DNA of 64,000 nucleotides from Motilibacter aurantiacus (GTDB taxonomy: Bacteria; Actinomycetota; Actinomycetes; Motilibacterales; Motilibacteraceae), in contig NZ_JAANNO010000001.1 of NCBI RefSeq assembly GCF_011250645.1, positions 715,520 through 779,519 of the forward strand, in the 5' to 3' direction. The translations under genes were made by a program, and so were the position numbers. The notes beneath the pieces are model-generated. The model was not told where the DNA came from. It made no database searches and saw nothing but the letters and a program-made list of their open reading frames with translations. Below, piece after piece: positions 14,288-63,912 of the stretch. The stretch's first letter is position 1, and each line of letters opens with the position of its first letter.

Positions 14288-14317
14288 ACGCGCTCCGGCG
14301 CGGTCCAGGGCAGGGGG

Positions 14318-15021: not shown

Positions 15022-15037
15022 AGCACGCTGCGCAGGG

Positions 15038-16696: not shown

Positions 16697-16721
16697 CAGG
16701 CTTCCTGTGTCGTCGGGCCGG

Positions 16722-18476: not shown

Positions 18477-18513
18477 CAAGATCCACCTCGGTGTGGACGT
18501 CAGGACGGCCGCA

Positions 18514-18542
18514 ACCTAAAGAGAGCCCGAACACGCTGTCAA
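18514..18542 (-). promoter_or_regulatory. Housekeeping-type promoter of the hydrolase operon
   Basis: On the minus strand a perfect -35 TTGACA (18537-18542), a 17-nt spacer and -10 TTAGGT (18514-18519), giving a short leader to ATG 18476. It lies between the hydrolase and the divergent ROK gene, so ROK binding here could repress both. Confidence 0.65.
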
Positions 18543-18585
18543 TGAGCCAGTTCTGGACGAAATCGCCGAGGTAGCGTTCCGCCCC

Positions 18586-19803: not shown

Positions 19804-19879
19804 CCATGCACGACCGTGCCGGTTCTGCGCAGCGCGCGGCCGTGGACAACGGTCGCGGTCGTGCACGGTCAGCGGGGGG
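19794..19879. terminator. Long bidirectional hairpin terminator
   Basis: 23-nt arms (19794-19816 and 19856-19878) pair with one mismatch around a ~39-nt loop. The left arm overlaps the ROK stop codon. It separates ROK (+) from the converging PRC-barrel gene (-). Confidence 0.7.
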
Positions 19880-19889
19880 AGGGGTGAGG

Positions 19890-20813
19890 TCAGAGGCGGC
19901 GCGAGGCGTCCGGGCCCGTCCCGGGCTGCGCCGTGGCCTCGCGGCCTGCGTCGAGGTCGATCCGCTCCTTGCGGACGTCGGCGCTGACCGTCTCGTCGTG
20001 GGTCTCGGTCTCCGTCTCGAGCCGGACCCGCTCGACCGGGACCGTCTCCGTGCTGACGACGGGGCGCTCGGCGTGCAAGGTGACCTCGTGCTCGGCCTCG
20101 GAGATGTCCGGGCCGCTCGTCGCGCGGCCGACGTTCTCGGCGGTGACGGGCTCGCTCACGAGCCGGGCGTGCTCGGTCGTCACGGGCACCGTCACCTGCT
20201 GCTGCTCGGTCTCGACCCACTTGCGCAGGCGCGCCCGCCCGGTCCGCACGGTCTCCGTGCCTGCCCGCAGCTGCTCCTCCGAGCGGGTCATCGCGTCGTC
20301 GGTGGCGTCACCGGAGGACATGGACGCGCCGGTCAGGCCCGAACCCGCCATCTGCGAAGCGACCATCGGCGAAGCAGACATCGCAGAGGTGGGCATCGCA
20401 GAGGTGGGCATCGCAGACTCGTCCGCCTCGCCCGCCGGCATGTCAGTGCGCGCCATGCCCGTCTGCGCCATGCCCGTCTGCGCCATGCCTGCGTCAGACC
20501 GGGTCATCCCGTAGTAGCGGTAGAGCTCGGCCTCCTGCTCCTCGCTGAGGTGGCCCTCCGCCGGGTCGACGTTCGGCGCGTCCTTCACCATTCCCTTGTC
20601 GAAGGGCACGGAGACCTCGTCGCCCTGCAGCTGCGCCTCGGCGACCGGCACGAAGCTCTCGTGGGTCCCGAACAGCCCGGTGTGCACGGTGACCCACTCG
20701 GGCCGGCCGCTGACGTCGTCGACGAAGACCTGGCCGATCTTCCCGATCCTCTCGCCGTCCGCGCCCCGGAGCGTGCCGCCGATGACACCGCCCGCCTGCT
20801 CCTGCGTGATCAT
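19890..20813 (-). CDS. PRC-barrel and DUF2382 (YsnF-like) stress protein
   Basis: 307 aa from ATG 20813; longer frames upstream are spurious. The N-terminus is a PRC barrel (GGVIGGTLRGADGERIGKIGQVFVDDVSGRPEWVTV, residues ~6-85). The C-terminal half is DUF2382, with its repeated T/E/V pattern (LRKWVETEQQQVTVPVTTEHARLVSEPV; VERVRLETETETHDE). These domains occur in general-stress proteins of actinobacteria. The linker (~residues 110-165) is Met/Ala/Thr-rich and built of short tandem repeats, reflected in 15-bp DNA repeats at 20381-20413 and 20455-20487. It is a single gene and cytoplasmic. Confidence 0.88.
   Translation of the reverse strand: MITQEQAGGVIGGTLRGADGERIGKIGQVFVDDVSGRPEWVTVHTGLFGTHESFVPVAEAQLQGDEVSVPFDKGMVKDAPNVDPAEGHLSEEQEAELYRYYGMTRSDAGMAQTGMAQTGMARTDMPAGEADESAMPTSAMPTSAMSASPMVASQMAGSGLTGASMSSGDATDDAMTRSEEQLRAGTETVRTGRARLRKWVETEQQQVTVPVTTEHARLVSEPVTAENVGRATSGPDISEAEHEVTLHAERPVVSTETVPVERVRLETETETHDETVSADVRKERIDLDAGREATAQPGTGPDASRRL
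20381..20487. repeat. 15-bp tandem repeats inside the PRC/DUF2382 gene
   Basis: The unit GCAGAGGTGGGCATC is repeated around 20381-20413, and ATGCCCGTCTGCGCC around 20455-20487 with a degenerate third copy upstream. They encode SAMPT and GMAQT pentapeptide repeats in the linker and keep the frame. Confidence 0.6.
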
Positions 20814-20943
20814 CGCCCTCGCCCTCTCTGTCGGCAGTCTGTCGAGGGACCGGGCACCGCCACCCACGGCGCGGCCCCTGAAGACTCCCGTCCCCGGCGA
20901 CGGCGGCCCGGAAACGGCGGCCGGCCACCCCGTCCGGGCCCTT

Positions 20944-23034: not shown

Positions 23035-23136
23035 GCGGGTCCTCCTGCAGGTCGGTCGTCCCTATCCTGCGCGCCCGCGGCCGCCCCCACACCCCGGGTA
23101 GGCGCGGGCGGAGGGCTAAGGCCGCCGGCAACAGGA

Positions 23137-23175
23137 AGGGCGACGCACCCGCCTGCCGGCGTGGCACGTCGCCCT
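23137..23175. terminator. Hairpin terminator
   Basis: 9-nt arms AGGGCGACG and CGTCGCCCT (23137-23145 and 23167-23175) with an inner GC-rich stem in the loop, ~50 nt past the phosphatase stop at 23223. Confidence 0.55.
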
Positions 23176-23222
23176 CCCCTCACCTGCGGCGGCCCGCCCT
23201 CACGTGGCAGCGCCGCCCCGGG

Positions 23223-24611
23223 TCACCTCTTGGCCGCGGCCGAGGTGATCTTCTTGCCGTCCTCGTCGAGGTCGTAGACGCGCTTGCGGTCGCGGTCGAA
23301 GTCCTTCTCGATCACGAAGCCGTCGTGCCACTCGCCGTTGGCCTTGCGGGCCTCGTAGCGCATGGTCTCGCCGTCGACGTCGATGAGCTGGTACAGCTGG
23401 TTGTCCTCCAGCTGCTTGGTGACCTCGGCGCCGTTGCTCGTCCAGTTGACGCCGCCGTTGAGCTCGTACATCTTCTCGCCCGAGACCGAGACGACGTACA
23501 CGGTGCCCTGCTGGTTGATGGCGTTCTTGCGGTTGACCGCGAGGTTGCCACGGGCGTACGAGTGGTCGTGTCCCTGCAGGACCAGGTCCACGTTGTACTT
23601 CTCGAAGATCGGCAGCCAGTACTTGCGGACGTTCGGGTTGTTGCGCGTGCCGGTCGTGGAGAACGCCGGGTGGTGGTACGTGACGACCGCCCACTCGTTC
23701 GGGTTGTCGCGCAGGACCTGCTCGAGCCACGCGGCCGTGGCCTCCATGTAGGCGGTGTTGCCCTGGAGGTTGGTGTTGAGGCCGATGAAGCGGACGCCCT
23801 GGTAGTCGGTGTAGTACGTGGTCTCAGGGGCGACCGTGTTGAACGCCGCGGGGCCGTTCTTCGGGAACTCGAACTGCTTGTCCCAGTAGCGGGCCAGCTG
23901 GCCACCGCTGTACTCGTGGTTGCCCGGGATGCCGAGCTGGTTGATCATGCCGGTCGTGAAGCCACCGGCGTAGAACCACTCGCCCCACTGGGAGTCGCTG
24001 TTCGCCGAGTCGACCAGGTCGCCGGCGTGGACGACGAGCTGGGCCTCGCTGCGGTCGCGGAAGGCCTGCCGGAACACGCGCGAGGCGTGCTGCTTGATGC
24101 CGTTCTGCGCGTCGCCGTAGTAGATGAACGAGAACGGCTTAGCCGACGCGGCGGCGGTCTTGAACTGGAACCACTCGGACCAGTTGACGCCGTCGCCGAC
24201 GCGGTAGGTGTACATCGTCTCCGGCTCGAGTCCGGTGAACGTCGCCGAGTGGAACGAGACCGGGTAGCCGAGGTCGGCCTGGACGGTCGGGCTCGTCGTC
24301 GCGGTCAGGCGGGTCGGGGTGAACGACGGGCCACCGGTCGCCTTGGCGATCTCGGCGTAGCCCGGGTTCTCCGTGGCGTCGGAGCGCCACGAGACGCTCT
24401 GCGACGTCGCCGGGTCCGTCGTCGGGTTCATGACGACGCGGTCGGGGACCGAGATCGCCTTGTACTGCTCGGCAGCCGGGTACTTGGTCGGCGCGGCGCC
24501 GGTGGCCGAGGTGACGACACCGCCGGCGAGGGCGGCGGCGGCGACGCCGACGGCCGAGACGCGTGCAACGCGCGAGTGGTAAACCCGCGAGCGCAGGGAG
24601 CTGCTGCTCAT
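23223..24611 (-). CDS. Secreted purple-acid-phosphatase-like metallophosphoesterase
   Basis: 462 aa. A signal peptide (residues 1-~40) is followed by a fibronectin-like purple acid phosphatase N-domain (TGLEPETMYTYRVGDG). The metallophosphoesterase core carries all five metal motifs: GDAQNG (~residue 167), GDLVDS, GNHEYS, HHPAFS and GHDHSYAR. The PAP Tyr following the second motif region is not clear by eye. Exported phosphoesterases of this kind release phosphate from organic esters. A PhoP-box-like repeat 59-78 nt upstream fits phosphate-starvation control. The codon choice has more AAG/TAC/AAC than the neighbours, as is usual for an abundantly made secreted enzyme. Confidence 0.9.
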   Translation of the reverse strand: MSSSSLRSRVYHSRVARVSAVGVAAAALAGGVVTSATGAAPTKYPAAEQYKAISVPDRVVMNPTTDPATSQSVSWRSDATENPGYAEIAKATGGPSFTPTRLTATTSPTVQADLGYPVSFHSATFTGLEPETMYTYRVGDGVNWSEWFQFKTAAASAKPFSFIYYGDAQNGIKQHASRVFRQAFRDRSEAQLVVHAGDLVDSANSDSQWGEWFYAGGFTTGMINQLGIPGNHEYSGGQLARYWDKQFEFPKNGPAAFNTVAPETTYYTDYQGVRFIGLNTNLQGNTAYMEATAAWLEQVLRDNPNEWAVVTYHHPAFSTTGTRNNPNVRKYWLPIFEKYNVDLVLQGHDHSYARGNLAVNRKNAINQQGTVYVVSVSGEKMYELNGGVNWTSNGAEVTKQLEDNQLYQLIDVDGETMRYEARKANGEWHDGFVIEKDFDRDRKRVYDLDEDGKKITSAAAKR

Positions 24612-24669
24612 CAGTGCTCTGGTCCTCTTCGTCTAGGAGACGCTGATACCGCGAGTGCGGCGGACCAGT

Positions 24670-24689
24670 CCTAGGTGTGCAGGGTGAAC
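24670..24689 (-). promoter_or_regulatory. PHO-box-like site upstream of the phosphatase
   Basis: Read on the minus strand, GTTCACCCTGC overlaps GCACACCTAGG; each matches 9 of 11 positions of the Streptomyces PhoP half-repeat G(G/T)TCAYYYR(G/C)G. The two are offset by 9 nt rather than the usual 11, which lowers confidence. Confidence 0.3.
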
Positions 24690-24739
24690 GAAGAGCGACG
24701 AGCGAAGGGCCGTGCGCTGAACGCGCGTTCGTCAAACCA

Positions 24740-24756
24740 TGACAGCGGCAGTGTCA
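24740..24756. promoter_or_regulatory. TGACA-N7-TGTCA dyad
   Basis: A perfect 5-bp inverted repeat separated by 7 nt in the divergent region; the cognate regulator is unknown. Confidence 0.3.
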
Positions 24757-24875
24757 CCCGACGTTAACCCGGCAGTTGCCCGCGAGTCAGGGAACACCCT
24801 CCGGTCGTTCGCCTCCGGCGGCCACCGTGGCGCCCGCCGGCCTGCGAGGAGCAGTCTTCCCCGCACCGGCGCTTA

Positions 24876-24892
24876 TTGCAAGTGTCTCGCAA
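24876..24892. promoter_or_regulatory. Nur-box-like operator upstream of the Ni/Co transport operon
   Basis: TTGCAA-GTGTC-TCGCAA matches the Nur (nickel-responsive Fur-family) box TTGCAA-N5-TTGCAA with one mismatch. It lies 25 nt before ATG 24918, overlapping the expected promoter of a nickel/cobalt transporter operon, exactly where nickel repression would act. Confidence 0.55.
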
Positions 24893-24917
24893 CTACGGCC
24901 TCTCGAGGAGAAGCCCG

Positions 24918-25568
24918 ATGCCCGTCCTGTCCCGCGGACGCCGGCTCGGGGTCGGTGCGCTGGCCGCACTGGGCCTCGTCGTCGCCGTGCCCACGGCGGC
25001 GTACGCCCATCCCTTCGGCCCGCCGCTCACCGCCCAGCTGAGCGTCGAGGGCAGGACGGTCGAGCTCGAGCTGCACATGCCGAGCGACGACTGGATGGCG
25101 ATCGCCCAGCTCCTGCAGGTCTTCGACGAGGCCCCCGGGGACACCACCACCACGGGTGAGCAACGACTGGTGCAATCGGAGAAGTTCGCTTCGTATCTGA
25201 CCGAGAGCGTCCGCGTGTCCCAGGACGGCGACGACTGCGCGCGGAGCGTGACCCCCCGGCCCAGCCTGCTCGAGGACGGCATCGTCGTCGTCGCCGACTG
25301 CCCCGAGGCGGTCGACACGGTGACGCTCGACATCACCACCCTGCACGAGGTGCACGCGAACTACCGCACCGTCGTGTCCGGCGCCGGTGCGCCGCAGACC
25401 CTCTTCACCAGCTCCGCCCCGACCCACGAGCTGACGCTGACGGGCGGCACGGGCTCGACCCCGCTGCCCGGCCTGCTGACCGCCGGTGGCTTCCTCGCGG
25501 CCGCCGCCGCGGCCGCCGTGGCCTTCCCCCTGCTGCGCCGTCGTACCCGAGAGGCTTCCCGTGCCTGA
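24918..25568 (+). CDS. Exported membrane-anchored accessory protein of the Ni/Co transporter
   Basis: 216 aa from ATG 24918, with GAGGAG 7 nt upstream; a longer frame begins inside the operator. A signal peptide ends at ...TAAYAH, leaving HPFGPP at or near the mature N-terminus. A beta-rich extracytoplasmic domain of ~150 residues has two Cys (DDCARS, ADCPEA). A C-terminal transmembrane helix (LLTAGGFLAAAAAAAVAFPLL) and basic tail anchor it. Its stop overlaps the transporter start by 8 nt, so translation is coupled. An N-terminal His on an exported domain suggests metal capture for the transporter. No named family is recognised. Confidence 0.75.
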   Translation: MPVLSRGRRLGVGALAALGLVVAVPTAAYAHPFGPPLTAQLSVEGRTVELELHMPSDDWMAIAQLLQVFDEAPGDTTTTGEQRLVQSEKFASYLTESVRVSQDGDDCARSVTPRPSLLEDGIVVVADCPEAVDTVTLDITTLHEVHANYRTVVSGAGAPQTLFTSSAPTHELTLTGGTGSTPLPGLLTAGGFLAAAAAAAVAFPLLRRRTREASRA

Positions 25569-31612: not shown

Positions 31613-33862
31613 GTGAACGGGATTTCCGAGGTTCTTGCCGGCGGCAGCGTCCGCAGCGTCTTCCAGCCGATCGTCGACCTCGACAGCGGGTCGGTCGTCG
31701 CGTACGAGGCGCTGGCCCGCGGCCCGCGGGGCGAGCTCGAGCGCCCTGACCTTCTCTTCGCCGCGGCCCGCGCCGAGGGCCGGCTGGCCGAGCTCGACGA
31801 GCTGTGCCGGCGCGCGGCCCTGCGCGGCGCGGTCGAGGCCGGCGTCGTGCTGCCCCTGACGCTGTTCGTCAACGTCGAGCCCGAGGTGCTGGACAGCGCT
31901 CCCCTGGAGGAGCTGCTGGCGATCAGCGTCGACGCGCCCGGCGGGATGCAGGTGGTCCTGGAGATCACCGAGCGCGCGATCGGGACGCGGCCGGCCGAGC
32001 TGCTCGCGACCGTGACCCGGCTGCGCGAGGCGGGCTGGCGCATCGCGCTGGACGACGTCGGTGCCGACGACCTCTCGCTCGCCTTCATGCCGCTGCTCCG
32101 CCCCGACATCGTCAAGCTCGACCTCCGCCTGGTCCAGCAGCGCCCCGGCCCCGCCGTGGCCGAGATCATGAACGCGGTGAACGCTTACGCCGAGCGGACC
32201 GGCGCGCTGATCCTCGCGGAGGGCATCGAGGACGAGTCCCACCTCGCCGTGGCGCGTGCGCTCGGGGCCCGGCTCGGGCAGGGCTGGATGTTCGGCCGCC
32301 CCGCGGCGACCCTGAACCCCACCCTTCCCGTGAGCTCGCTCGACCTGCCGCCGGCCGTCGCCTTCACGCCGCAGGCCTCGCCCTTCGAGTGCGTGCCCGA
32401 GAGCACCCCCCTGCGCCGCTCCACCAAGCCGCTGCTCATCGAGCTGAGCAAGCACCTCGAGCGCGAGGCGCTGCGGTTCGGCTCCACCTGCATGGTCGTC
32501 GCCGCGTTCCAGGAGGCGAAGCACTTCACCGTCTCGACGACCCAGCGCTACCGCGAGCTCGCGGAACGGACCGGCTTCGTGGCCGCGATCGGCGAGGGCC
32601 TGTCCGCCGAGCCCGCCGCCGGCGTACGCGGCGCCGACCTGCCCGCCGACGACAAGGTGCGCGGCGAGTGGGACATCGCCGTGCTGTCGCCGCACTTCTC
32701 GGCCGCGCTGCTGGCCCGCGACCTCGGCGACCGGGGCCCGGACCTGGAGCGGACCTTCGAGTTCGCGCTGACCTACGACCGCGACGTCGTCGCCGACGCG
32801 GCAGCGGCGCTGATGGCCCGCGTCCTGCCGCAGGACCCGGCCGCGCTCGAGGCGCTGCGGGCGACCGCGGCCGGCCTGCCGTCCGCCCAGCCGACGCAGG
32901 CCGGCCCGGCGCACCGGACGCGCGAGACGGACTCCGAGCGGACGCTGCGCCGCGCGCTCGCCGCGACGGCCAACGGCGTGACGATCTCCGACGTGACGCG
33001 ACCGGACCAGCCGCTGATCTACGTGAACACCGCCTTCGAGCGGCTCTCCGGGCTGCGGGCCGAGGACGTCATCGGGCGCAACTGCCGGTTCCTTCAGGGT
33101 GAGGGCACCGACCGTGATGCGGTGAAGCGGCTGCGCGAGGCCATCGCCGACGGCCGGGAGATCCGCGAGACGATGCTCAACTACCGCGGGCCGGAGCGCA
33201 CGCCCTGGTGGAACGAGATCTACCTCGCGCCGGTCTTCGACGACACCGGCCGCGTGGTGCAGTACATCGGCGTGCAGAACGACGTGACCGCGCGGGTCGA
33301 GGCCGAGGCCCGGCTCACCCGCGAGCGGGAGCGGGCCGAGGCGTACGCGGCCGAGATCGAGCAGCTGGCCTGGCGGGACCCGCTGACCGGCGTGCTCAAC
33401 CGCCGCCGGGTGCAGGAGGCGCTGGAGGGCACGATCCTGCACTCGCAGATGAGCGACACCGGCGCCGCCCTGCTCTACCTCGACCTCGACGGCTTCAAGG
33501 GGGTCAACGACGACTTCGGCCACGCGGCCGGCGACGAGCTCCTGCGCGTGACCGCCGAGCGGCTCCGGGCCCGGCTGCGCCGCGGGGACCTCATCGCCCG
33601 GCTCGGCGGCGATGAGTTCCTCGTCATCCTGCCCGGGCTGGACCAGGCGTCGGCGGGCGTCGAGGGGCGGCGGGTGGCCGACGAGCTGGCGGCGATCCTG
33701 TCCGAGCCCGTCCGCACGGGACGTGGGCTGGCCCGGGTCCGCGCGAGCATCGGGGTGAGCTCGTTCCCGCAGGACGGCAGCGGGTTCGACGAGCTGCTGC
33801 ACGCGGCCGACACCCGGATGTACGCGATCAAGAACGCGAACCGGAGCTCCGGGCTGCACTGA
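31613..33862 (+). CDS. EAL-DICT-LOV-GGDEF blue-light c-di-GMP protein
   Basis: 749 aa, GTG start with GAGGAG 4 nt upstream. EAL domain (~1-240): YEALARG, LFVNVEP, LEITERA, IALDDVGADD, IVKLDLRL and AEGIED supply the usual metal and general-base residues, so phosphodiesterase activity is likely. A DICT-like sensory domain (~265-400) follows. The PAS domain (~445-560) has the LOV signature GRNCRFLQGEGTD with the FMN-adduct Cys at ~491. The GGDEF domain (~590-749) has intact RLGGDEF and an RRGD I-site five residues before it, so product-inhibited cyclase activity is likely. The protein should make and break c-di-GMP under blue-light control. Its 3' end overlaps the converging gene by 35 nt. Confidence 0.9.
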   Translation: MNGISEVLAGGSVRSVFQPIVDLDSGSVVAYEALARGPRGELERPDLLFAAARAEGRLAELDELCRRAALRGAVEAGVVLPLTLFVNVEPEVLDSAPLEELLAISVDAPGGMQVVLEITERAIGTRPAELLATVTRLREAGWRIALDDVGADDLSLAFMPLLRPDIVKLDLRLVQQRPGPAVAEIMNAVNAYAERTGALILAEGIEDESHLAVARALGARLGQGWMFGRPAATLNPTLPVSSLDLPPAVAFTPQASPFECVPESTPLRRSTKPLLIELSKHLEREALRFGSTCMVVAAFQEAKHFTVSTTQRYRELAERTGFVAAIGEGLSAEPAAGVRGADLPADDKVRGEWDIAVLSPHFSAALLARDLGDRGPDLERTFEFALTYDRDVVADAAAALMARVLPQDPAALEALRATAAGLPSAQPTQAGPAHRTRETDSERTLRRALAATANGVTISDVTRPDQPLIYVNTAFERLSGLRAEDVIGRNCRFLQGEGTDRDAVKRLREAIADGREIRETMLNYRGPERTPWWNEIYLAPVFDDTGRVVQYIGVQNDVTARVEAEARLTRERERAEAYAAEIEQLAWRDPLTGVLNRRRVQEALEGTILHSQMSDTGAALLYLDLDGFKGVNDDFGHAAGDELLRVTAERLRARLRRGDLIARLGGDEFLVILPGLDQASAGVEGRRVADELAAILSEPVRTGRGLARVRASIGVSSFPQDGSGFDELLHAADTRMYAIKNANRSSGLH

Positions 33863-47326: not shown

Positions 47327-48958
47327 GTGACCGGATCGACAACCGTCCCTGCCCGGGCTCCGAAGCCCGGGCACCCCCTGCGCTGGAAGCTGCTCGGCAT
47401 CCTCTGCCTGAGCGTGCTCCTCGTCGCGATCGACAACACGATCGTCAACGTCGCCCTTCCGACGCTCGACCAGGAGATGGCGTCCTCGACCTCCGCCCTG
47501 CAGTGGGTGGTCGACAGCTACACCGTCTGCTTCGCCGGGCTGCTGCTGCTCTGCGGCAACATCGGCGACCGGCTGGGCCGCAAGCGCGTCCTGCAGGCGG
47601 GCCTCGTGCTGTTCGCCGTCGCGTCGTTCTTCGCCGCGCAGGCCTCCTCCACGGAGGCACTCGTGACGTGGCGCTCGGTCATGGGCGTGGCCGCGGCCCT
47701 CGTCTTCCCCTGCACGCTGGCAATGGTGTCGACGCTGTTCCCCGACCGGCAGGAGCGAGCCGCCGCGATCGGCATCTGGGCCGGCGTGGCGGGCCTCGCG
47801 GTGGCGCTCGGCCCGGTGGTCGGCGGCCTGCTGCTCGAGCACTTCTGGTGGGGCTCCATCTTCATCGTGAACCTGCCGATCATCGCGCTCTCCCTCGTGC
47901 TCGGCGCCCGCTACCTGCCCGAGTCCAGGGACGCCGCGCCCGGGCGCTTCGACCCGTACGGCGCGGTGCTCTCCATCGCGATGGTCGGGCTGCTGGTTCG
48001 GACGGTCATCGAGGCGCCGAACCGCGGGTGGACGTCGGCGGCGACGCTGCTCGGCTTCGCCGCGTCGGCCGCGCTCGTCGTGGCCTTCGTCGTGGTCGAG
48101 GCGCGCCGGGACAGCCCGCTGCTGGACGTCACGCTCTTCCGGAACCCCCGCTTCTCGGCCGCCAGCGCTGCGATCTCGATCGCCTACTTCGGCCTGTTCG
48201 GGTTCATCTTCATGATCACGATGTACTTCCAGCTGATCCGCGACTACAGCACGCTCAAGGCGGGCCTCGCGACGCTGCCGTACGCCGCCGTCATGGCCGG
48301 CCTCTCCCCCGTCTCGATCCTCGTGATGAAGAAGATCGGCACGAAGGCCGTGGTCACGATCGGCATGGTGCTCATGGCGGCCGGCTTCCTCGTCGCGGCG
48401 CGGGCAGGGCTGGACGCCGACTACTGGACCGTGGTGGTCGTCTCGATGGTCCTCATGGCCGCCGGCATGGCGCTGGCCACGGGGCCTGCGACCGACTCGA
48501 TCCTCGCCGCGCTGCCGGAGGCCAAGGCGGGGGTCGGCTCCGCCGTGAACGACACGACCCGCGAGCTGGGCGGAGCGCTCGGCGTCGCGGTCGTCGGCTC
48601 GGTGATGAGCTCGTACTACGCGAGCAAGCTGGCCGACTCCTGGGGCGGGCTGGGCCTGCCCACCTCGGTGACCGACGCCGCCGACGAGTCGTTGGGCGCC
48701 GGGCTGGAGGTCGCCCGCCAGCTGCCCACCGACCAGGCCGGCCCCGCGGTCGACGCCGTCCGCGACTCCTTCATCTCCGGCCTGCACGCCGGGTCGGTCG
48801 CGGCGGCCGTCGCCGCGCTGCTCGCGGGCCTCGCCGCGCTGGTCTTCCTGCCCCGCGACGACCGCCCCGCGCCGGAGGCGGCGATCCCGGCGCCGCGTCC
48901 CGAGGGCACCGCGCTCCCGGTGCAGGCCGTCGAGCCGGCCGGGCCCACCACTCGCTGA
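47327..48958 (+). CDS. MFS exporter, DHA2 (14-TM) family
   Basis: 543 aa from GTG 47327 (GGAGA upstream); a longer frame extends into the promoter region. TM1 carries LVAIDNTIVNVALPTLDQEM (DHA2 motif), then WVVDSYTVCFAGLLLLCGNIGDRLGRKRVL (motif A) and GVAGLAVALGPVVGGLLLEHFWW (motif C). Fourteen hydrophobic segments. It exports drugs or metabolites by proton antiport. It lies ~1.5 kb from the PKS/NRPS operon on the other strand and could export its product, but a link is only inferred from position. Confidence 0.9.
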   Translation: MTGSTTVPARAPKPGHPLRWKLLGILCLSVLLVAIDNTIVNVALPTLDQEMASSTSALQWVVDSYTVCFAGLLLLCGNIGDRLGRKRVLQAGLVLFAVASFFAAQASSTEALVTWRSVMGVAAALVFPCTLAMVSTLFPDRQERAAAIGIWAGVAGLAVALGPVVGGLLLEHFWWGSIFIVNLPIIALSLVLGARYLPESRDAAPGRFDPYGAVLSIAMVGLLVRTVIEAPNRGWTSAATLLGFAASAALVVAFVVVEARRDSPLLDVTLFRNPRFSAASAAISIAYFGLFGFIFMITMYFQLIRDYSTLKAGLATLPYAAVMAGLSPVSILVMKKIGTKAVVTIGMVLMAAGFLVAARAGLDADYWTVVVVSMVLMAAGMALATGPATDSILAALPEAKAGVGSAVNDTTRELGGALGVAVVGSVMSSYYASKLADSWGGLGLPTSVTDAADESLGAGLEVARQLPTDQAGPAVDAVRDSFISGLHAGSVAAAVAALLAGLAALVFLPRDDRPAPEAAIPAPRPEGTALPVQAVEPAGPTTR

Positions 48959-49655: not shown

Positions 49656-50444
49656 TCAGGCCACGACGTCCGCGACGTCGCGCCCGCCCGGCAGCAGCCC
49701 GCCCCGGCGGCCGGCCCGCAGCAGCCCGTCGACGTGCGCCTGCACCTCGGCCTCGGCCTCGTGGACGAAGAAGTGGCCGCCGGGGAACTCGCGCAGCGAC
49801 GTCGGGGCCGTCGTCAGCGATCGCCACGCGGCCAGCCCCTCCTGGGTCGTGTGGGCGTCGGCCGTGCCTCCCAGCACGTGCACCGGGCAGTCGAGCAGGG
49901 GCCCGTCGTGGAACTCGTAGGAGTCGACGAGCTCGAAGTCGGCCCGGATGGTCGGCATGAGCAGCTCGAGCAGCTCCTCGTTGTCGAGGACCACCGCGGG
50001 TGTGCCGCCGAGCCGGCGCAGCTCGTCGACGAGCTCGGCGTCGGACAGGGTCGTGCGCCGACGCGCCGCCGGCACCCTGGCCTGCGGGCCGTCGGCCCCG
50101 CTCACGACGAGCGCGACCGGCGACACCGGCAGCCGCCGGGCCACCTCGTAGGCGACGTAGGCGCCCAGGCTGTGCCCGAAGAGCGCGTAGCGCGGGCGCA
50201 GCACGGGCTCCAGCTCGTCGACGAGGAGGTCCACCAGCTCGAAGAAGCCCTCGACCGGCGCCTCCGCGAACCGCTTGCCGCGCCCGGGCAGCGAAGCGAC
50301 GTAGGACCGCGCGGTGCCGAGCGCCCCGCGCCAGGACCGGAACGCGCCCGGGTTGCCACCGGCGTACGGGAAGAGGACCAGGTCCACCCCGCCGGGCGTC
50401 CCCGGGGCGAGCGGCTCCAGCCAGGCCGATCCTGCGGCGCTCAT
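49656..50444 (-). CDS. Type II thioesterase (editing)
   Basis: 262 aa, overlapping the NRPS stop as ATGA. TEII hallmarks: LVLFPYAGGNPGAFRSW, nucleophile GHSLGAYVAYEVARRL (Ser ~residue 92), DAHTTQEG Asp and GGHFFVHE His. It frees mis-primed or stalled acyl groups from the carrier proteins. Because the NRPS lacks an integrated thioesterase, this enzyme may also assist release, but classic TEIIs do not usually perform it. Confidence 0.92.
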   Translation of the reverse strand: MSAAGSAWLEPLAPGTPGGVDLVLFPYAGGNPGAFRSWRGALGTARSYVASLPGRGKRFAEAPVEGFFELVDLLVDELEPVLRPRYALFGHSLGAYVAYEVARRLPVSPVALVVSGADGPQARVPAARRRTTLSDAELVDELRRLGGTPAVVLDNEELLELLMPTIRADFELVDSYEFHDGPLLDCPVHVLGGTADAHTTQEGLAAWRSLTTAPTSLREFPGGHFFVHEAEAEVQAHVDGLLRAGRRGGLLPGGRDVADVVA

Positions 50445-53400
50445 GCCCGCACCTGCCCCGTCCCGGGCGCGTCGGCGCCCGCCGCGAGGCGGAGCACGAG
50501 CCCCGCCGGGGTGCGTGCGGCGTACAGGTCGCGCAGGCCGATCTGCGCGTCGTCGAGCCGGCGCAGCCGGGTCACGAGCTCGATGGCGTCGATGGAGTCA
50601 CCGCCCAGTTGGAAGAAGTCGTCGTGCAGCCCGATGGCCTGGCGCCCGAGGGTCGACTCCCAGAGCTCGACCATCCGCCGTTCCTCGGGCCGGGTCGGGG
50701 GGACGTACGGCGCGGTGGCCGTGGTCGCCAGTGCGCCGAGCTGGCGCTCGAGGGTCTTGCGGTCGACCTTGCCGTTGCCCGACAGCGGAAGCGCGGGCAG
50801 CTCGGCGACGACCAGCGGCACCATGTACGCCGGCAGGATCGGGGCGAGGAACTCGGGGAGGTCGACCTCCCCGTCCGTGCCCTCGGCCCGCACCCAGGCG
50901 CATGCCAGCCGCTTGTCGGCCAGCTTGTCCCCGAGCGCGAGGACGGTCGTCTCCGCGACGGCGGGGTGGCGCAGGATCGCGCGCTCGACCTCTCCCGCCT
51001 CCACGCGGTAGCCGCCGATCTTGAGCTGGAAGTCCGACCGGCCGAGGAACTCGATGTTGCCGTCCGACATCAGCCGGCCGAGGTCCCCCGTGCGGTAGAG
51101 CCGCTCGCCGCTGACGGGGTGGCGCACGAACGCGGCGTCGGTCAGCTCCGCCGAGCCCCAGTAGCCGAGCGCCAGCCCCACACCCCTGATGTACAGGTCA
51201 CCCGTCACCCACGGGGGAGCCGGGCGCAGGTCTGCGTCCAGGACGACGACGTCCTGGTTCTTCATGCCCTTGCCGTAGGGGACGCTGTTCCACGCCGGGT
51301 CGACCACCGTGACCGGGTACGTGATCGACCAGATCGAGGCCTCGGTCGCGCCCCCGAGGCTGTGCAGCTCGGCCTTGGGGCACCTCTCCCAGGCTGCGGC
51401 CGGGAGCCCCAGCGGGATCCAGTCGCCGCTGAGCAGGACGACGCGCAGCTCCGGGCAGGGCGCGTCCAGGGCGCCGACGAAGAGGTTGAACAGCGCCGGC
51501 ACGGTGTTCCACACGGTGACGCCGTGCCTGGTGACGAGGTCGATCTGGTGCAGCGGGTCGAGCCGGCGTGCCGGGTCCGGCACCACGAGCGCGCCACCGG
51601 CTGCGAGCAGCCCGAAGACGTCGTAGACGGAGAGGTCGAAGCTCAACGAGGACAGCGCGAGCACCCGGTCGGCCGGGCCGACGCCGTAGCGCTCGTTGAC
51701 GTCGACGATCGTGTTGAGCGCCCCCCGGTGGTCGATCATGACGCCCTTGGGCACGCCGGTCGAGCCGGACGTGAAGATGACGTACGCCAGGTCCTCCGCG
51801 CGCACGGTGTGCGACCGCAGCGCGTCCGCGGAGCCCGTGTCCACGTCGTCGACCGTGAGCACCGTCCCGGGGAAGACCTCCGCCAGCCGGTCACGCATCC
51901 ACGGCTGGGTCAGCAGGCATCGCACGCCCGCGAGCTCGGTGATCGTCAGCAGCCGCTCGGCCGGGGTGTCCGCATTGAGCGGGAGGTACGCCCCCACCGC
52001 CACCGTGCCGAGCACGGCCGCGGTCTGCTCCCAGCCCGGCTCCATCATCACCGCCACGGGCTCGCCCGCCCGGACGCCGTGGGCGCGCAGGGCCGCGGCC
52101 ACACCGCCGGCGCGGGAGGCGAGCTCGGCGTACGTCAGCGTCCGGGTCGGCGAGATCACGGCGTCGGCGTGCGGCGTGGCCTCGAGCGAGGCAAGGAACG
52201 GGTCGAGCAGCGTCCCGGCCGGCACGTCCGCGATCTCCAGCGGCGCCGGGGCCTCGAGCGCAGCCGGCCCGTCCCACGCCGCCGGGTCACCGGCGAGCCG
52301 GTGCAGCAGAGCGACCCACTCGGCGAACATCGCCTCGACGAAGCCCTCGGGGTAGACGTCGAGCACGACGTCCCAGTTGCAGCGCAGGTCCTCGCCCTGC
52401 GCCTCCCAGATGCCCGCGTCCAGCCACACCTGCGACGTCTGCGTGACCCCGAGCTCCGGCTGGTGCCGGACCGGGAAGCTGGAGTCGGGCATGGGGATGC
52501 CGAGGGCGCTGGTGAACACGACCGGGAAGTGGGCAGCGCCCGGGCTGTTGTGGTGGCGGGCGTACTCGCGCAGCACCCGCACGCCGCTCATGTCGTTCTC
52601 CTCGAGGACCTCCCACAGGTCACGCTGGATTCGACGGGCGGCCTCGACGAAGGCCGGCCGGTCGGCGAGGTCGACGGGCAGGAGCGTGAGCGAGGTGAAC
52701 TCGCCAGCCACCTGGTCGACCTGGGGGTGGAAGGGCTTGCGGTTGAGGAAGGTGAGGTTGAGCGAGAAGCGCGGGTCCTGCACGCGCCCCGCGAGCACCT
52801 GCGCGTACGCCGTGAGGCAGACGCCGCTCGGGGTGAGCCCGTGCTTTCCCGCAGCGCGCTTCAGTGACTCCCAGACCTCCTTCGGCACCCGGGCGTGCAG
52901 CCGGGTGAACCGCGGCTCCTGCAGCTCGTCGGGGCGGCGGGCCATCGGAAGGCCGGGGGCGCCGGGCAGGGTGGGGATGCGCCGGTCCCAGTACGCCTTC
53001 GTGCGCGCGAACCGCTCGCTCTGCTCGAACTGCCGGTCCGCGAGGACGTAGTCGCGGAACGAGAACTCGAGCTCCGGGAGCGGGAGGCCGTCGTAGATCA
53101 TGGCCAGCTCGCGGAGCACGAGCGTGAAGCTGGCCGCGTCGAGCAGCAGGGCATCGGTGCTGAAGTGCAGCACCTGCACGTCGCCGGGGAGCAGGCTGAT
53201 GCGGATGTCGAAGTTCGGCCAGCGCGTCATGTCGAGCTTCTGGTGGGACAGCTCGTCACGCACGTGCTGCAGGCCGGCGTCGATCTCCTCCTGCGCGGCC
53301 TCGCGCAGGTCGTGGACGCGCGGGACGTAGTCGGGCACCTCGCGCAGGATCTGCTGCCCGCCGTGGTCCAGGACGACCGCTCGCATCATCTCGTGCCGCT

Positions 53401-56400
53401 CGATCACCTGGTTGAGCGCGCGGGTGAGGCGGTCGACCTGCAGCCCCTCCGACTGCAGCTCGTCGTAGCTGTGGGTCGAGACGCCGCTGAACTCGAACGC
53501 CCCGTCCCGCCCGAGCCAGTAGGCCTGCTGCACGTCGGTGAGCGGGAACGGGTCGTGGCGGTGCTCGGGGTCCGGCTCCACGAGCGGCACTGGGCGGTCG
53601 TCCGCGGGCGTGTGCAGCGCGGCGACCCGCTGCACGAGGCCCTCGACGGTCGGGGAGTCGAAGAGCTCCCCCACGCGCAGCCGCACGCCGATCTCGCGGT
53701 GCACCCGACTGAGCAGGTCGAGCGCGGTGAGCGAGTGGCCGCCCAGGGCGAAGAAGCTCTCGTCCACGCCGACGTCGTCGAGCCCCAGCACCGCACCGAA
53801 GAGGGCGGCCATCGCCTCCTCCTCCGCGGTCCGCGGCAGCACGCGCTCACGCCGCGACCGCGGGACCTCCAGCTGCGACAGCCGGGCGCGGTCGACCTTG
53901 CCGCTGGGCAGGTAGGGCAGCTCGTCCGTGAGCAGCAGCTCGGGCACCAGCGCGCCGGGAAGCCGCTGCACGAGCCGCTGCCGCCAGGACGCGGCGTCGG
54001 CGGCCCGGACGTCGGGCACCACCCACGCCACGAGCCTCGCGTCCTCCGCCGTGCCGGAGACCAGCGCAGCGGCCTCCCGCACGCCGGGCAGGGCGCGTAC
54101 CGCCTGCTCGACCTCGCCCAGCTCGATGCGGACGCCACGCAGCTTGACCTGGTCGTCGTTGCGGCCGAGCAGCACCAGGTCCCCGTCCTCGTTCCGGAAT
54201 CCCAGGTCCCCCGTCTGGTAGACGCGCTGCTCGACGCCCGCCGGGGCCGCCGTCGAGAAGCGCGACTCGTCGGCACTGACGTACCCGGCGCCGAGCCCCC
54301 GCCCGCCGACGACCAGTTGGCCCGCGACACCGGGCGGCACCAGCCGGCCGGCGGCGTCGACGACGTAGACCTCGCAGTTCGGCAGGGGCCGCCCGATCGG
54401 CATCCTGGCGCCTGCGACCCCCTCCTCGGGGACGCGGAAGATCGTGCTGTCGACCGTCGCCTCCGCCACGCCGTACGTGTTGAAGAGCGCGGTGCCGGGG
54501 GCGAGCACGTCGCGCCGCCATTCGGCGGCCTCTGCCGGGGCCCACGCCTCGGACGCCACGACGAGGTTGCGGATGTCGAGCCGTCGTCCGCGGCGCGCCA
54601 GCTCCGCCACGAGCCGGCGGAACACGCTGGGCACGAACTCGGCGAAGTCGAAGGACCGCCCGTGCACCAGGTCGGCGAAGCGGGAGGGGTCTGCGGCGGC
54701 CTCGGCCTCCACCACGCGCAGGTGCCCACCCGTGCCGAGCGCGCGGGCCACGTCACCGTAGAAGACGTCGAAGCTGCTGCCGGCGAGTTGGAGGCACTCC
54801 GGCGCGTCGAGCTCGAAGGCAGAACTCCAACTCCTGAGCATCGCTGCATAGGAGGCGTGCGGGACACGCACTCCCTTCGGCCTGCCGGTCGAGCCGCTGG
54901 TGTAGACGAGGTACGCGTCGGCACCGGCCCGGCTCCGCGCCACCGGGGCGGCCGGCAGCTCGGAGAGGATCAGTACCCGGCGTCCGCCCTCGGCGAGCTC
55001 GAACCGCTCGAGCACGTGCGTGCGCTCGGTCAGCACGGGTGCGTCGGCGTCGTCGGCCATGGCCCGCAGGCGCCCGACCGGCAGTGCCGGGTCGAGCACG
55101 AGGCAGGCCTTGCCTGCCTTCCACACGCCGAGCAGTGCCGCGAACAGGGCCGCCGAGCGCGGCAGCATCACGGCGACGACCGGCGCGTCGCGAAGGCTGT
55201 CGAGCACCTGGTCGCGGACGCGGTCGCTGAGCGCGGCGAGCTCGGCGTAGCCGACGGTCCGGTCCGCGTCGGTGACGGCCGGGGCCTGCGGCGCACGCCG
55301 GGCGGCGGCCTCGAACGCGTCCACGACGCTCGCGTGCACCGGCTCGAGCACCGGCCCGCGGGAGCGGGCGATCACCTCCTCACGCTGGGCCGGGCCCAGC
55401 AGCGGCAGGTCGCGCAGCCGGCTCGCGGGGTCGGCGGCCATGGCGGCGACGAGGCCGCGGTAGGAGTCGGCCAGGCTCTGCACGGTGGCTCGCGAGTAGC
55501 GCCGGGTGTCGTACTCGAGGAGCAGCCGGACGCCGTCGTTCTCCTCGACCACGTCGAGCGAGAGGTCGAACTTGGAGGTGCCGAAGTCGAGATCGAGGTA
55601 GTCCGCGCGCAAGCCCCCGACCGGCGCGAGGTCGACCGCCGGCTGGAAGGTGAACAGGGTCTGGAACACCGGGTGCACGCCGGCCGACCGCACCGGGTTC
55701 GTGAGCTCGACGATGCGGTCGAACGCCACGTCCTCGTGGGCGAAGGCGTCGAGGCTGGAGGCCGCGACGGCGCGGAGCAGCTCGCGCACCGTCATGGCGC
55801 CGTCGAGCCGGATGCGCAGCGGGATCGTGTTGACGAACGTCCCGATCAGCTGGTGGGTCGTGCTGTCGGACCGGCCCGAGACCGGGGTCCCCACGACGAT
55901 GTCGTCCTGGCCCGACCGCTGCTGCAGCAGCACGTCGAAGACGGCGAGCGCCGCGGCGAAGGGGGTGGCGCCCTCGGCCCGGGCCGCCGCGACCAGCGGC
56001 TGCCACTCCGGCCCGCGAAGCTCGGCGACCAGCAAGCCCCCCTCCGGCCCGACGGGCGCCGCCGGGCCCTCCACGCTGAGCCGGAGCGGGCCGCCCGGGT
56101 CGCGCAGGTAGTCGACCCAGAAGCGCTCGTCGGCGCTCGGGCCCGGCTCCTCGCCGCGCAGCGAGTCGATCTGCCGGCGCAGCTCGTGGCGGGCGCGCTC
56201 CCACTGCGCGTAGTCGGGGTACTGCCACTCCAGCGGCTCGAGCTGCTGTCCGTCGAGCAGCCGCAGCAGCTCGCCGAGGAAGACCTTGAGCGACCAGCCG
56301 TCGAAGACGATGTGGTGGAACGACAGCACGAGGTAGCTGCGCCCCGCCGCCTGCCGCACCAGGAGCGCCCGCCACAACGGCAGCCTCGAGATGTCGAAGG

Positions 56401-56804
56401 GGCGCCGGACGAACCCGGCGGCGAGCGCGGTCACCCCCGCCTCGTCGGCGGGGCCGTCCACCACCTCGAGCTCGGGCGCGTACGCCGGCTCGACCTCCAG
56501 CCGGGGCGGGTCACCCACGACCCGCGTCCGGAGGATCTCGTGCCGCCGCGCGATCGTGCCGAGCGCGGCCCGGAGCTCCTCGACGTCGACCGCTCTGCTG
56601 AGCCGGAAGTAGCCGGGGATGTTGTAGCTGGCGTCCTGCTCACCGGTCCGGGCGAGGTACCAGAGCCGCTGCTGCGCCGGCGACAGGGGCACGGCGTCCG
56701 GCCGCGGCGCCGAGCGCAGCGCCTGGAGCCGGGTGCCGTAGAGCGCGTCGAGGACGGCCGTCCGCTTGGCCGGGTCGAGCGCCCGCAGGCGCGTGAGGAA
56801 GGTG

Positions 56805-56815
<11 letters not shown>
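50441..56815 (-). CDS. NRPS, C-A-PCP-Cy-A-PCP (basic amino acid, then cysteine heterocycle)
   Basis: 2124 aa. C (~40-470) has HHIVFDG intact. A1 (~475-990) has FDVFYGD...; the eye-read code is D-V-G-E-V-A-T-V-D, close to the ornithine code DVGEIGSVD. PCP1 is FFALGGHSLTAL (~1027). Cy (~1080-1530) has FPLTDVQQAYWLGR, DALLLDAAS (DxxxxD of cyclization domains, ~1222), NLTFLNRKPFHP, VVFTSALG and QVWLDAG...W. A2 (~1540-2030) has FDLSVYD and SLGGATEASIW; its code is D-L-Y-N-L-S-L-I-W, that of cysteine. PCP2 is FFQLGGDSIDAI (~2072). There is no epimerization, oxidation, TE or reductase domain. The product is expected to be acyl-(Orn-like)-thiazoline. It starts 11 nt inside the PKS end (coupled). Confidence 0.93.
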
Positions 56816-62147
<5,332 letters not shown>

Positions 62148-62242
62148 CACAATGGGGGCGGAAGGCAGCACTGTGATACGCACGAGCGGGCACGCCCGGC
62201 GCAACAGGTGTCAGAGGTACGGGCGGCGCGCCCGCAGGGAGG

Positions 62243-63169
62243 TCAGCTCCGGCCGGAGGAGGCGAGCCCCGCGCTCTGGACCGTGAGCGTCACGGCCTCC
62301 TTGAGCGGCGTCGCGGCTTCACCGAAGGCGGCTGCGTACTTCGAGCTGTCGGCGACGTGCGGGGACGTGTACGTGTAGAAGGTCTCCTTGAGCGCCTTCA
62401 TCGTCGGGTTGAAGAGGCTCATCAGGTTCATGACCGCGGGGCCCGCGATACGGAACTTCGGTTGTGCGCCCAGCACCTCGCCGAACGCCGTCATCAGCTC
62501 GCGGTGGGTGGTCGGCTCCTGCATGGGCGCGTGCCATACCTGGCCGAGCGCCGAGTCCGACGAGGCGACATTGACCATCGCGCGGGCGAAGTCGTCGATG
62601 TATGTCATGGTGTGCGGCTGGTCGACCGAGCCGAGCGCGGGCACCGGCTTCCCGGCGGCCAGAGCGGCGAGCTCGGAACGGCCGGCCATCGAGGTCTCGA
62701 CCCCGGGCCCGTAGAACGACGCGCCGCGGACGACAGCGGTACGCAGGCCGGGCGCATCGAGCACGCGCCGGTCCAACCGCTTGCGCAGCGCGCCCTTCGG
62801 CCCGGTGGCGAGCTCGGGGGAGGCCTCGGTGAGCGTGCCCTGCTGCGGGCCGTAGGCGTACAGGTTGCTCGCGAAGACGAGGGTCTTGCCGCTGTCGCGC
62901 AGCCCGTCGAGCAAGCCTCCCACCAGCGCGTCGAACTCCTCCACCCAGCTGGTCAGCGGCGGAGCAGCGCACAGGTGCACCACCTCGCAGTCCGCGGCCA
63001 CGGCGCGCACCTGCTCCGCGTCGCTCGCGTCCAGCTGCCGCCACTCGGCGCCCAGGCCCTCGACCCGGTTGCGGGACGCGGCAACCACCGGGATGCCGCG
63101 CGTGCGCAGCTCCTCGACCACGCGGCGTCCGAGCGGCCCGAGACCGATGACCAGCTGCTGGTTGTTCAA
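62243..63169 (-). CDS. NAD(P)-dependent SDR/epimerase-like tailoring enzyme
   Basis: 308 aa from TTG 63169, which has GGGAGC 6 nt upstream and gives MNNQQLVIGLGPLG; an ATG at 63202 would add 11 residues without a ribosome site. Extended-SDR Rossmann motif LVIGLGPLGRRVVEEL, VVHLCAAP, FASNLYAYGPQQG (substitutes for the YxxxK region), RGASFYGPGVETSM. The catalytic Tyr/Lys pair is not clear, so it may be a non-canonical reductase or NmrA-like. It is first in the operon, 95 nt before the PKS, so it probably acts on the product or precursor. Confidence 0.82.
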   Translation of the reverse strand: MNNQQLVIGLGPLGRRVVEELRTRGIPVVAASRNRVEGLGAEWRQLDASDAEQVRAVAADCEVVHLCAAPPLTSWVEEFDALVGGLLDGLRDSGKTLVFASNLYAYGPQQGTLTEASPELATGPKGALRKRLDRRVLDAPGLRTAVVRGASFYGPGVETSMAGRSELAALAAGKPVPALGSVDQPHTMTYIDDFARAMVNVASSDSALGQVWHAPMQEPTTHRELMTAFGEVLGAQPKFRIAGPAVMNLMSLFNPTMKALKETFYTYTSPHVADSSKYAAAFGEAATPLKEAVTLTVQSAGLASSGRS

Positions 63170-63912
63170 CGTGTTGCTCCCGTGCGAGAGGTCGGATGGC
63201 ATGAGCGAGCGCGACCAGGCGCGCCACGCATCGCGTGTCGAGCTGTCCAGGAACGACGATCAGGGCATCTCGACGGAAGCGCATGTTGCGCATTCGCGTT
63301 CAGGGGAATCGACATTGCGGACGACGCGGGCCCGGCACCTGGCAGGCCGGCCGACCGAGAGGCCGGCGGGACGAGCACCCTTCCCAGTGCTTCCACGACC
63401 GCCCGAGCGGCCACCGTACCCATTGCCGCACTTCTGAACAAGGGGTGCTCACCCCCCAATCCCGGCCAGTCGTAGATCTTTCCGGTCACGTCTCGCCGCC
63501 TACGGTCGTAAAGGAGCCGTCCGACCCATGCTTGATGCATCGACTTTCAGGCAGCGGACACAGGTGGCGCCCGTCCGGGACGCTGCCCGGCATCGCCCGC
63601 CGGCTCCGCCCGCGCCCAGGCCCGGTCAACTCAGCCATCCATAGTTGGCCGAAGACATCTACACCGATGAAAGGTGCATGTATCAGCGGTGAACTGATCG
63701 GTCTCTCCCCGAACGGCACCCGGAATTCCGGAGCCATTGCGTGGCGCGGGTGCGCCGGAAGTGCAAGCATGCCCCCCGTCGCCCGTCCCTCCGCCACGCC
63801 CGCACGACCTGCGGGCGCGGTCACGTGGCCCGGTCGCCGGCCCGTCCGGCCGGCGTGAGGACGCGGCCGGAACGCAAGGCTCCGTCTCCTTCTTCAGACA
63901 AGGACTTGCTGC
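63170..63912. other. Upstream control region of the biosynthetic operon
   Basis: 743 nt without a convincing gene. It contains GCGCA-TGT-TGCGC (63279-63291), a perfect CCGGAATTCCGG palindrome (63720-63731) and an ATCAG/CTGAT dyad (63682-63698). Locally the GC content falls (around 63640-63720), as in regulatory regions. It separates the minus-strand operon from the divergent exported protein. Confidence 0.5.
63720..63731. promoter_or_regulatory. 12-bp perfect palindrome
   Basis: CCGGAATTCCGG, ~180 nt upstream of the exported-protein start at 63913. Possible operator; the regulator is unknown. Confidence 0.3.

What the first reader, a model, noticed from the sequence alone, without database searches (positions are those of the whole stretch)
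49656..63169. Compact PKS-NRPS-TEII operon predicted to make a polyketide-(basic amino acid)-thiazoline
Four minus-strand genes (SDR, PKS KS-AT-DH-KR-ACP, NRPS C-A-PCP-Cy-A-PCP, TEII) run within ~13.5 kb and are coupled by 4- and 11-nt overlaps at the PKS/NRPS and NRPS/TEII joints. Module order implies an enoyl or hydroxy acyl chain, one Orn-like residue, then a cysteine cyclised to thiazoline. I do not recognise this exact architecture as a characterised pathway.
Basis: partly seen in the sequence, partly recalled or inferred. Interest (0 to 1): 0.8.

Follow-up and report, generated by a model that had tools for sequence, protein, structure and literature searches.

The report
Polyene–ornithine–thiazoline-type assembly line
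A four-gene bacterial assembly line, apparently with no close relative in the public genomes searched, joins a polyketide module like those that build polyene chains to an ornithine-loading module and a cysteine-cyclising module, and so probably makes an unknown acyl-ornithine-thiazoline compound.

Summary
Four minus-strand genes lie where stated: an atypical SDR, a PKS (KS-AT-DH-KR-ACP), an NRPS (C-A-PCP-Cy-A-PCP) and a TEII. PKS/NRPS overlap by 11 nt and NRPS/TEII by 4 nt; catalytic motifs are intact. The unit is an insert between topA and a DUF7059 methyltransferase gene, which are about 126 bp apart in a related family.

A2 carries the cysteine code (DLYNLSLIW) and is co-linear with the bacillamide Cy-A-PCP. 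A1 reads DVGEVATVD; its nearest relatives are ornithine A domains (DVGEVGSID) of polycyclic tetramate macrolactam (PTM) synthases. The PKS falls in a supported group of single-module KS-AT-DH-KR enzymes that includes the iterative PTM PKSs. Best reading: an iterative, PTM-like PKS makes a polyene acyl chain, which is loaded on ornithine and then on cysteine closed to a thiazoline, with no cis TE.

It is not a PTM cluster: no fused TE, no tailoring oxidases, and its C domain does not group with theirs. The NRPS module order alone recurs in a Halotia isonitrile-type cluster. Product, iteration and number of acyl chains remain inferred.

The parts
62243..63202 (-). Atypical extended SDR (likely start TTG 63169); Rossmann motif kept, catalytic YxxxK replaced by G-A-L-R-K; role unknown
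   Evidence: Pfam Epimerase 40 bits; start context; family alignment with homologues from 6 genomes
56805..62204 (-). Single-module type I PKS, KS-AT-DH-KR-ACP (likely start TTG 62117)
   Evidence: Pfam; motifs; start context
60825..62114 (-). KS domain
   Evidence: DTACSSS, EAHGTGT, NIGHLEAA; KS tree groups it with PTM and other single-module PKSs, 99/99
59565..60554 (-). AT domain, GHSAGE and VPYHSxxM as in PTM ATs; malonyl-CoA predicted
   Evidence: AT tree 100/99; GHSxGE read as malonate signature for a PTM AT in PMC3992020
58620..59474 (-). DH domain, LLDHRIEDEIVFP (PTM: LADHRIQDTVVFP)
   Evidence: best DH matches are PTM synthases, 37%
57405..58004 (-). KR domain (structural subdomain about 58005-58604)
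   Evidence: TGGLGALGL, Ser and Tyr motifs; Pfam KR
56910..57134 (-). ACP, GLDSM
50441..56815 (-). NRPS, C-A-PCP-Cy-A-PCP, no terminal TE or reductase
55346..56710 (-). C domain, HHIVFDG; not in the PTM C-domain group
   Evidence: C tree
53861..55330 (-). A1, code DVGEVATVD(K); ornithine predicted
   Evidence: DVGEIGSIDK is the ornithine code of a PTM synthase (PMC3992020)
53606..53830 (-). PCP1
   Evidence: LGGHSLTA
52226..53575 (-). Cy heterocyclisation domain, DALLLDAAS
   Evidence: aligns with BmdB, EpoB and HMWP2/Irp2 Cy structures
50726..52210 (-). A2, code DLYNLSLIW(K); cysteine predicted; no Ox or MT insert
   Evidence: code listed for Cys in PMC12283262
50486..50710 (-). PCP2, last domain of the line
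   Evidence: LGGDSIDAIEL
49656..50444 (-). Discrete type II thioesterase (editing and perhaps release)
   Evidence: Pfam Thioesterase 128 bits; GHSLGA and GGHFFV
47414..48958 (+). DHA2-type MFS exporter next to the operon; candidate export gene, link to the pathway inferred
   Evidence: Pfam MFS_1; EmrB-type drug efflux model over cut-off

Best explanation
A compact PKS-NRPS cluster. A lone KS-AT-DH-KR-ACP module, related to the iterative PKSs of polycyclic tetramate macrolactams, is used repeatedly with malonyl-CoA to build an unsaturated (polyene) acyl chain. The C domain of the separate NRPS moves the chain to ornithine loaded by A1 on PCP1. The Cy domain condenses acyl-ornithine with cysteine loaded by A2 on PCP2 and closes a thiazoline. 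With no cis TE or reductase, the 2-(acyl-ornithinyl)-thiazoline-4-carboxylate is released in trans, most simply by hydrolysis by the linked TEII; the neighbouring MFS protein may export it. Shown by sequence: gene order, coupling, domains, intact motifs, A-domain codes, phylogenetic groups. Inferred: substrates, iteration, chain length, release, product.
For: Domains and motifs. A2 code equals the known Cys code and Cy-A2-PCP2 aligns along its length with bacillamide BmdB. A1 code DVGEVATVD against PTM ornithine code DVGEVGSID; A1 groups with PTM ornithine A domains 99/98, and the alternative of grouping with the DLAEVGAVD set is rejected, p-AU 0.003; with cyanobacterial Orn-coded A domains added it stays within the set of DVGE-coded domains, 97/92. 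The only matches at E<=1e-80 in 394 genomes of the class are two synthases of PTM size, about 3,100 aa. KS and AT lie in a group with PTM PKSs (99/99 and 100/99; concatenated 97/93). DH and AT motifs look like PTM ones. In PTM synthases this module acts iteratively and its chains are joined to the alpha- and delta-amines of ornithine (PMC8399814). No second PKS or loading module lies in the locus. Two PPTase-family genes exist in the genome.
Against: The PKS is not specifically sister to PTM PKSs: AU tests reject neither PTM, Tsukamurella nor the mycobacterial-size group as partners, and iteration of the other members is not established here. The C domain does not group with PTM C domains. A1 has a long branch and differs from the Orn code at three positions (G-A, S-T, I-V), so lysine or a modified ornithine is possible. 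The release step has no dedicated domain, and the SDR has no assigned role. No product is known.
Confidence: 0.55

Rival explanations
1. The PKS works once: an acyl starter from fatty-acid or CoA metabolism is extended once by the single KS-AT-DH-KR-ACP module to a 2-enoyl or 3-hydroxyacyl chain, then joined to ornithine and a thiazoline.
For: One module normally means one extension; the PKS is not placed inside the PTM clade; the same PKS group contains members whose mode is unknown.
Against: No loading module, acyl ligase or starter ACP gene lies in the locus; the group that includes the iterative PTM PKSs is the best-supported placement.
Confidence: 0.27
2. Double acylation: as in PTM and isonitrile lipopeptide lines, both amines of ornithine are acylated before the cysteine is added, giving a bis-acyl-ornithinyl thiazoline.
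For: The A1 relatives come from PTM lines, in which both amines of ornithine are acylated (PMC8399814), and from a Halotia isonitrile-type cluster with the same module order; diisonitrile lipopeptides have lysine or ornithine cores (PMC9600254).
Against: The C domain does not group with PTM C domains and is unresolved in the tree; double acylation is a property of the C domain, not of the A domain.
Confidence: 0.15
3. The cluster is a degraded remnant that makes nothing, having lost its terminal TE and tailoring genes.
For: No cis TE; the SDR lacks the usual catalytic tyrosine; no relative with the same layout found.
Against: Long open frames with coding GC pattern, intact catalytic motifs in every PKS, NRPS and TEII domain, and preserved translational coupling.
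Confidence: 0.06

Closest known systems
Polycyclic tetramate macrolactam (PTM/PoTeM) synthases (SkoA, IkaA, HSAF PKS-NRPS; held examples L094, L096, L099, L071, L122, L124)
   Same: KS-AT-DH-KR-ACP followed by C-A-PCP; A code DVGEVGSID against DVGEVATVD, 37-43% identity; KS 52-55%, AT 43-49%; DH and AT motifs alike
   Different: Here PKS and NRPS are separate genes, Cy-A(Cys)-PCP stands in place of the TE, no phytoene-dehydrogenase-like, ADH, sterol-desaturase or P450 genes, and the C domain does not group with theirs
Halotia branconii isonitrile-type cluster (L123, NZ_CP124544.1)
   Same: NRPS with C-A(Orn)-PCP-Cy-A(Cys)-PCP in the same order, 37% over about 1,960 residues
   Different: TubC docking domain, nitroreductase (Ox) insert in A2, further Cy-A-PCP-TE, ScoE/ScoD-type acyl genes and a TonB receptor; no PKS found in the stretch read
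Bacillamide synthetase BmdB and yersiniabactin HMWP2 (Cy-A-PCP)
   Same: Cys-type A code and Cy motif; BmdB aligns over nearly the whole module
   Different: Other upstream substrates and release steps
Tsukamurella tyrosinosolvens plasmid cluster (L069)
   Same: Lone KS-AT-DH-KR-ACP PKS (KS 57%, KR 51%) followed by a separate NRPS
   Different: NRPS is C-A-PCP-reductase with another A code (DILQCGMIW); no Cy module
Deinococcus sp. KNUC1210 plasmid cluster (L070)
   Same: Single PKS (KS 50%, AT 48%) followed by Cy and a Cys-like A (52% to A2)
   Different: PKS has an enoylreductase region; no ornithine module seen; SagB oxidase, thioester reductase and aminotransferase follow

Membership tests
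PTM (PoTeM) biosynthetic cluster | Single KS-AT-DH-KR-ACP module | tested here: met
PTM (PoTeM) biosynthetic cluster | A domain with ornithine code | tested here: met
   DVGEVATVD against DVGEVGSID, tree support 99/98; three conservative differences
PTM (PoTeM) biosynthetic cluster | KS/AT inside the PTM clade proper | tested here: inconclusive
   wider group supported 97/93; sisterhood to PTM neither shown nor rejected, p-AU 0.24
PTM (PoTeM) biosynthetic cluster | PKS and NRPS fused, ending in a TE | tested here: not met
   separate genes; Cy-A-PCP and then the end of the protein
PTM (PoTeM) biosynthetic cluster | Phytoene-dehydrogenase-like and ADH tailoring genes next to the synthase | tested here: not met
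   none among the neighbours scanned; present in held PTM loci
PTM (PoTeM) biosynthetic cluster | C domain of PTM type | tested here: not met
   PTM C domains form their own clade without the window's
PTM (PoTeM) biosynthetic cluster | Iterative use of the PKS, two chains on ornithine | not testable with these tools
   needs biochemistry
Thiazoline-forming Cy-A(Cys)-PCP NRPS | Cy domain with DxxxxD motif | tested here: met
Thiazoline-forming Cy-A(Cys)-PCP NRPS | Cysteine A code | tested here: met
   DLYNLSLIW; PMC12283262
Thiazoline-forming Cy-A(Cys)-PCP NRPS | Cyclodehydration activity | not testable with these tools
   needs biochemistry
Isonitrile lipopeptide cluster | ScoE-type oxygenase, ScoD/FcoT-type enzyme, stand-alone ACP and acyl ligase | tested here: not met
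   none among the genes next to the operon; ScoE model over cut-off in Halotia L123, ScoD model just under it

The most novel reading that the evidence does not exclude
A PTM-like iterative PKS builds polyene chains on both amines of ornithine, and instead of Dieckmann release as a tetramate the bis-polyenoyl ornithine is passed to a Cy-A(Cys)-PCP module and leaves as a polyenyl thiazoline carboxylate: a new class between PTMs and thiazoline metallophores.
Probability: 0.12. Interest if true: 0.7.

Novelty: new variant of a known kind. Interest (0 to 1): 0.45.

Why it matters
If right, the PTM-type polyene/ornithine logic is not tied to tetramate formation but can be extended by a further NRPS module, giving an unexplored acyl-ornithine-thiazoline class from only four genes (about 13.5 kb), small enough to express whole in a laboratory host. 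It also offers a natural split version of the PKS-NRPS junction that is fused in PTM synthases, and a test of whether the PKS group that contains the PTM enzymes is iterative as a whole. Orphan PKS-NRPS clusters are common, however, so the surprise for a specialist is moderate until a product is seen.

Tried and rejected
Two wide searches of the class with the full NRPS failed for technical reasons, so shorter queries were used. PTM membership was considered and rejected on the missing fused TE, tailoring genes and C-domain placement, although the similarity in function is kept. Isonitrile lipopeptide membership was considered after the Halotia match and rejected for lack of the acyl-modifying genes. 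The SDR as a marker of the pathway was rejected: its homologues (33-39%) mostly sit outside such clusters. A siderophore reading was not adopted: no uptake genes next to the operon. Promoter and terminator scan gave nothing above chance. A first tree suggesting A1 is sister to PTM A domains alone (99/98) was weakened when cyanobacterial Orn-coded domains were added: A1 then falls outside both, within the DVGE-coded set. Literature searches for a thiazoline/ornithine/polyene pathway of this kind found none, but the library is open-access only. MIBiG and antiSMASH were not available. No structure prediction was run, since sequence already settled the domain calls. The organism could not be named with these tools.
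Full report
OBSERVATION. On the minus strand, in order of transcription: SDR (62243-63202, likely TTG start 63169), PKS (56805-62204, likely TTG start 62117), NRPS (50441-56815, 2124 aa) and TEII (49656-50444). NRPS and TEII share ATGA (4 nt); PKS and NRPS share 11 nt. All four frames show strong third-position GC (0.93-0.97). Pfam gives KS-AT-DH-KR-ACP for the PKS and C-A-PCP-C-A-PCP for the NRPS; the second condensation domain is a heterocyclisation (Cy) domain by its match to solved Cy structures and its DxxxxDxxS motif. All PKS, NRPS and TEII catalytic motifs are present. Nothing follows PCP2, so the line has no cis TE or reductase.

SURROUNDINGS. The operon lies among housekeeping genes: topA, an MFS-tmk fusion and holB on one side, a DUF7059 methyltransferase, H+-pyrophosphatase, an anti-sigma/STAS pair and an MrfA-type helicase on the other. 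In genomes of the same family and of other families topA and the methyltransferase gene lie 126 bp (G005), 1.2 kb (G004), 3.3 kb (G003) and 7 kb (G002) apart; here 18.2 kb separates them. So the cluster is an insert that holds, besides the four genes, an MFS exporter, a DUF1707 protein and an NHL-repeat protein. In the sister species G001 (topA 95% identical) contig ends next to topA and the methyltransferase carry other biosynthetic genes (AT-ACP-ACP, a PPTase, an MMPL transporter, a 4HBT thioesterase), so the site seems to be used by different clusters; the G001 contigs are not joined, so this is not proven.

CYSTEINE MODULE. Cy-A2-PCP2 aligns end to end with the bacillamide synthetase BmdB module, with 'DLSVYDVFG', 'VWNTVPAL', 'LSGDWIPL' and 'LGGATEASIWSI' matching. 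The A2 code is DLYNLSLIW, listed for cysteine in PMC12283262. A2 has no oxidase insert, unlike the Halotia relative, so a thiazoline rather than a thiazole is expected.

ORNITHINE MODULE. The A1 code is DVGEVATVD. Its best matches among 394 genomes of the class are two synthases of 3,107 and 3,098 aa, of the PTM type. Held PTM loci were recognised by domain order KS-AT-DH-KR-ACP-C-A-PCP and by neighbouring genes: phytoene-dehydrogenase-like oxidases, ADH, fatty-acid hydroxylase/sterol desaturase, as described for PTM clusters in PMC8399814 and PMC11724479. Their A code is DVGEVGSID; DVGEIGSIDK is read as ornithine for a PTM synthase in PMC3992020. In a 27-row tree A1 is sister to the PTM A domains (99/98), and a grouping with DLAEVGAVD domains is rejected (p-AU 0.003). 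After adding cyanobacterial ornithine-coded domains A1 lies just outside both sets (97/92 for the whole set; PTM sisterhood not rejected, p 0.25). A1 is a diverged member of the ornithine-coded group on a long branch; lysine or a modified ornithine cannot be excluded.

PKS. KS and AT each fall in a supported group (99/99 and 100/99) with PTM PKSs, a Tsukamurella PKS next to an NRPS, a Nocardia PKS and single-module PKSs of about 1,830 aa. A concatenated KS-AT-DH-KR tree keeps the group (97/93) but leaves the window's branch unresolved within it. DH 'LLDHRIEDEIVFP' and AT 'VPYHSxxM' resemble PTM forms. PTM PKS modules act iteratively and feed both amines of ornithine (PMC8399814); PTM-like KSs are an iterative subclass in NaPDoS2 (PMC9582728). 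With no loading module and no second PKS here, iteration is the better guess, but it is inferred.

C DOMAIN AND RELEASE. The C domain is unresolved and not in the PTM C group, so double acylation of ornithine has no direct support. The TEII is of the discrete type (best matches are alpha/beta hydrolases, one annotated together with an MbtH-family protein, up to 48%); release by it, or spontaneously, is inferred. The SDR keeps the Rossmann motif but has G-A-L-R-K where YxxxK is expected, so a classical dehydrogenase role is doubtful.

HOW RARE. A pattern scan of 84,980 genomes gave 15 loci, best segment 37% identity; 60 relatives gave at most 41% over the Cy-A-PCP half; KS in 297 genomes at most 57%; A1 in 394 genomes of the class and 396 of the phylum at most 43%; plasmid records under 60%. 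None has PKS plus C-A(Orn)-PCP-Cy-A(Cys)-PCP. The pattern scan can miss moderate relatives and the other searches are samples, so rarity is likely but not proven. The NRPS order alone recurs in Halotia branconii, in a cluster with a ScoE-type isonitrile enzyme, at 37% over about 1,960 residues.

VERDICT. Real, intact, uncharacterised as far as could be searched, and best read as a PTM-like polyene/ornithine line extended by a thiazoline module. It works like a PTM line in its first half but is not a member of that family. New variant of a known kind; interest moderate.

Noticed in passing
window:46877-64000 and L028; G001 loci L057, L058: The interval between topA and a DUF7059 methyltransferase gene varies between genomes (about 126 bp to 18 kb); in the sister species its two contig ends carry other biosynthetic genes (AT-ACP-ACP, PPTase, MMPL, 4HBT thioesterase), suggesting a site where clusters are exchanged.
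   Followed up: partly
L123 (Halotia branconii plasmid NZ_CP124544.1), 5274-23331: Isonitrile-type cluster whose NRPS goes on from C-A(Orn)-PCP to Cy-A(Cys, with Ox insert)-PCP and further Cy-A-PCP-TE, next to a TonB siderophore receptor: a likely isonitrile-thiazole metallophore; an IS701 transposase lies within it.
   Followed up: partly
L070 (Deinococcus sp. KNUC1210 plasmid), 9929-23537: Single PKS followed by Cy, a Cys-like A domain (not annotated, possibly frameshifted), SagB-type oxidase, thioester reductase and aminotransferase: a candidate alkyl-thiazole pathway.
   Followed up: partly
L069 (Tsukamurella tyrosinosolvens plasmid), 12001-25032: Lone KS-AT-DH-KR-ACP PKS with a separate C-A-PCP-reductase NRPS, ABC transporter and LLM flavin oxidoreductase; the KS part is not covered by the annotated gene.
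   Followed up: partly
window:41300-44089 (-): Thymidylate kinase fused to an MFS-type membrane domain.
   Followed up: no
G000:C4:60000-79999 (L029), L002: A second NRPS locus with a serine-type A code (DVWHCSLVD) and a DHB-ligase-like code (PLPAVGVVN), perhaps a catechol siderophore cluster; codes read only.
   Followed up: no
L108 (G142:C19), about 5854-10328 (-): A homologue of the window's SDR sits directly upstream of a gene encoding KS-ACP-alpha-oxoamine synthase, another PKS-type setting for this SDR family.
   Followed up: no
window:27126-29360 (+) and 31613-33862 (+): Bacteriophytochrome with a SpoIIE phosphatase output, and an EAL-DICT-PAS-GGDEF protein, close together.
   Followed up: no
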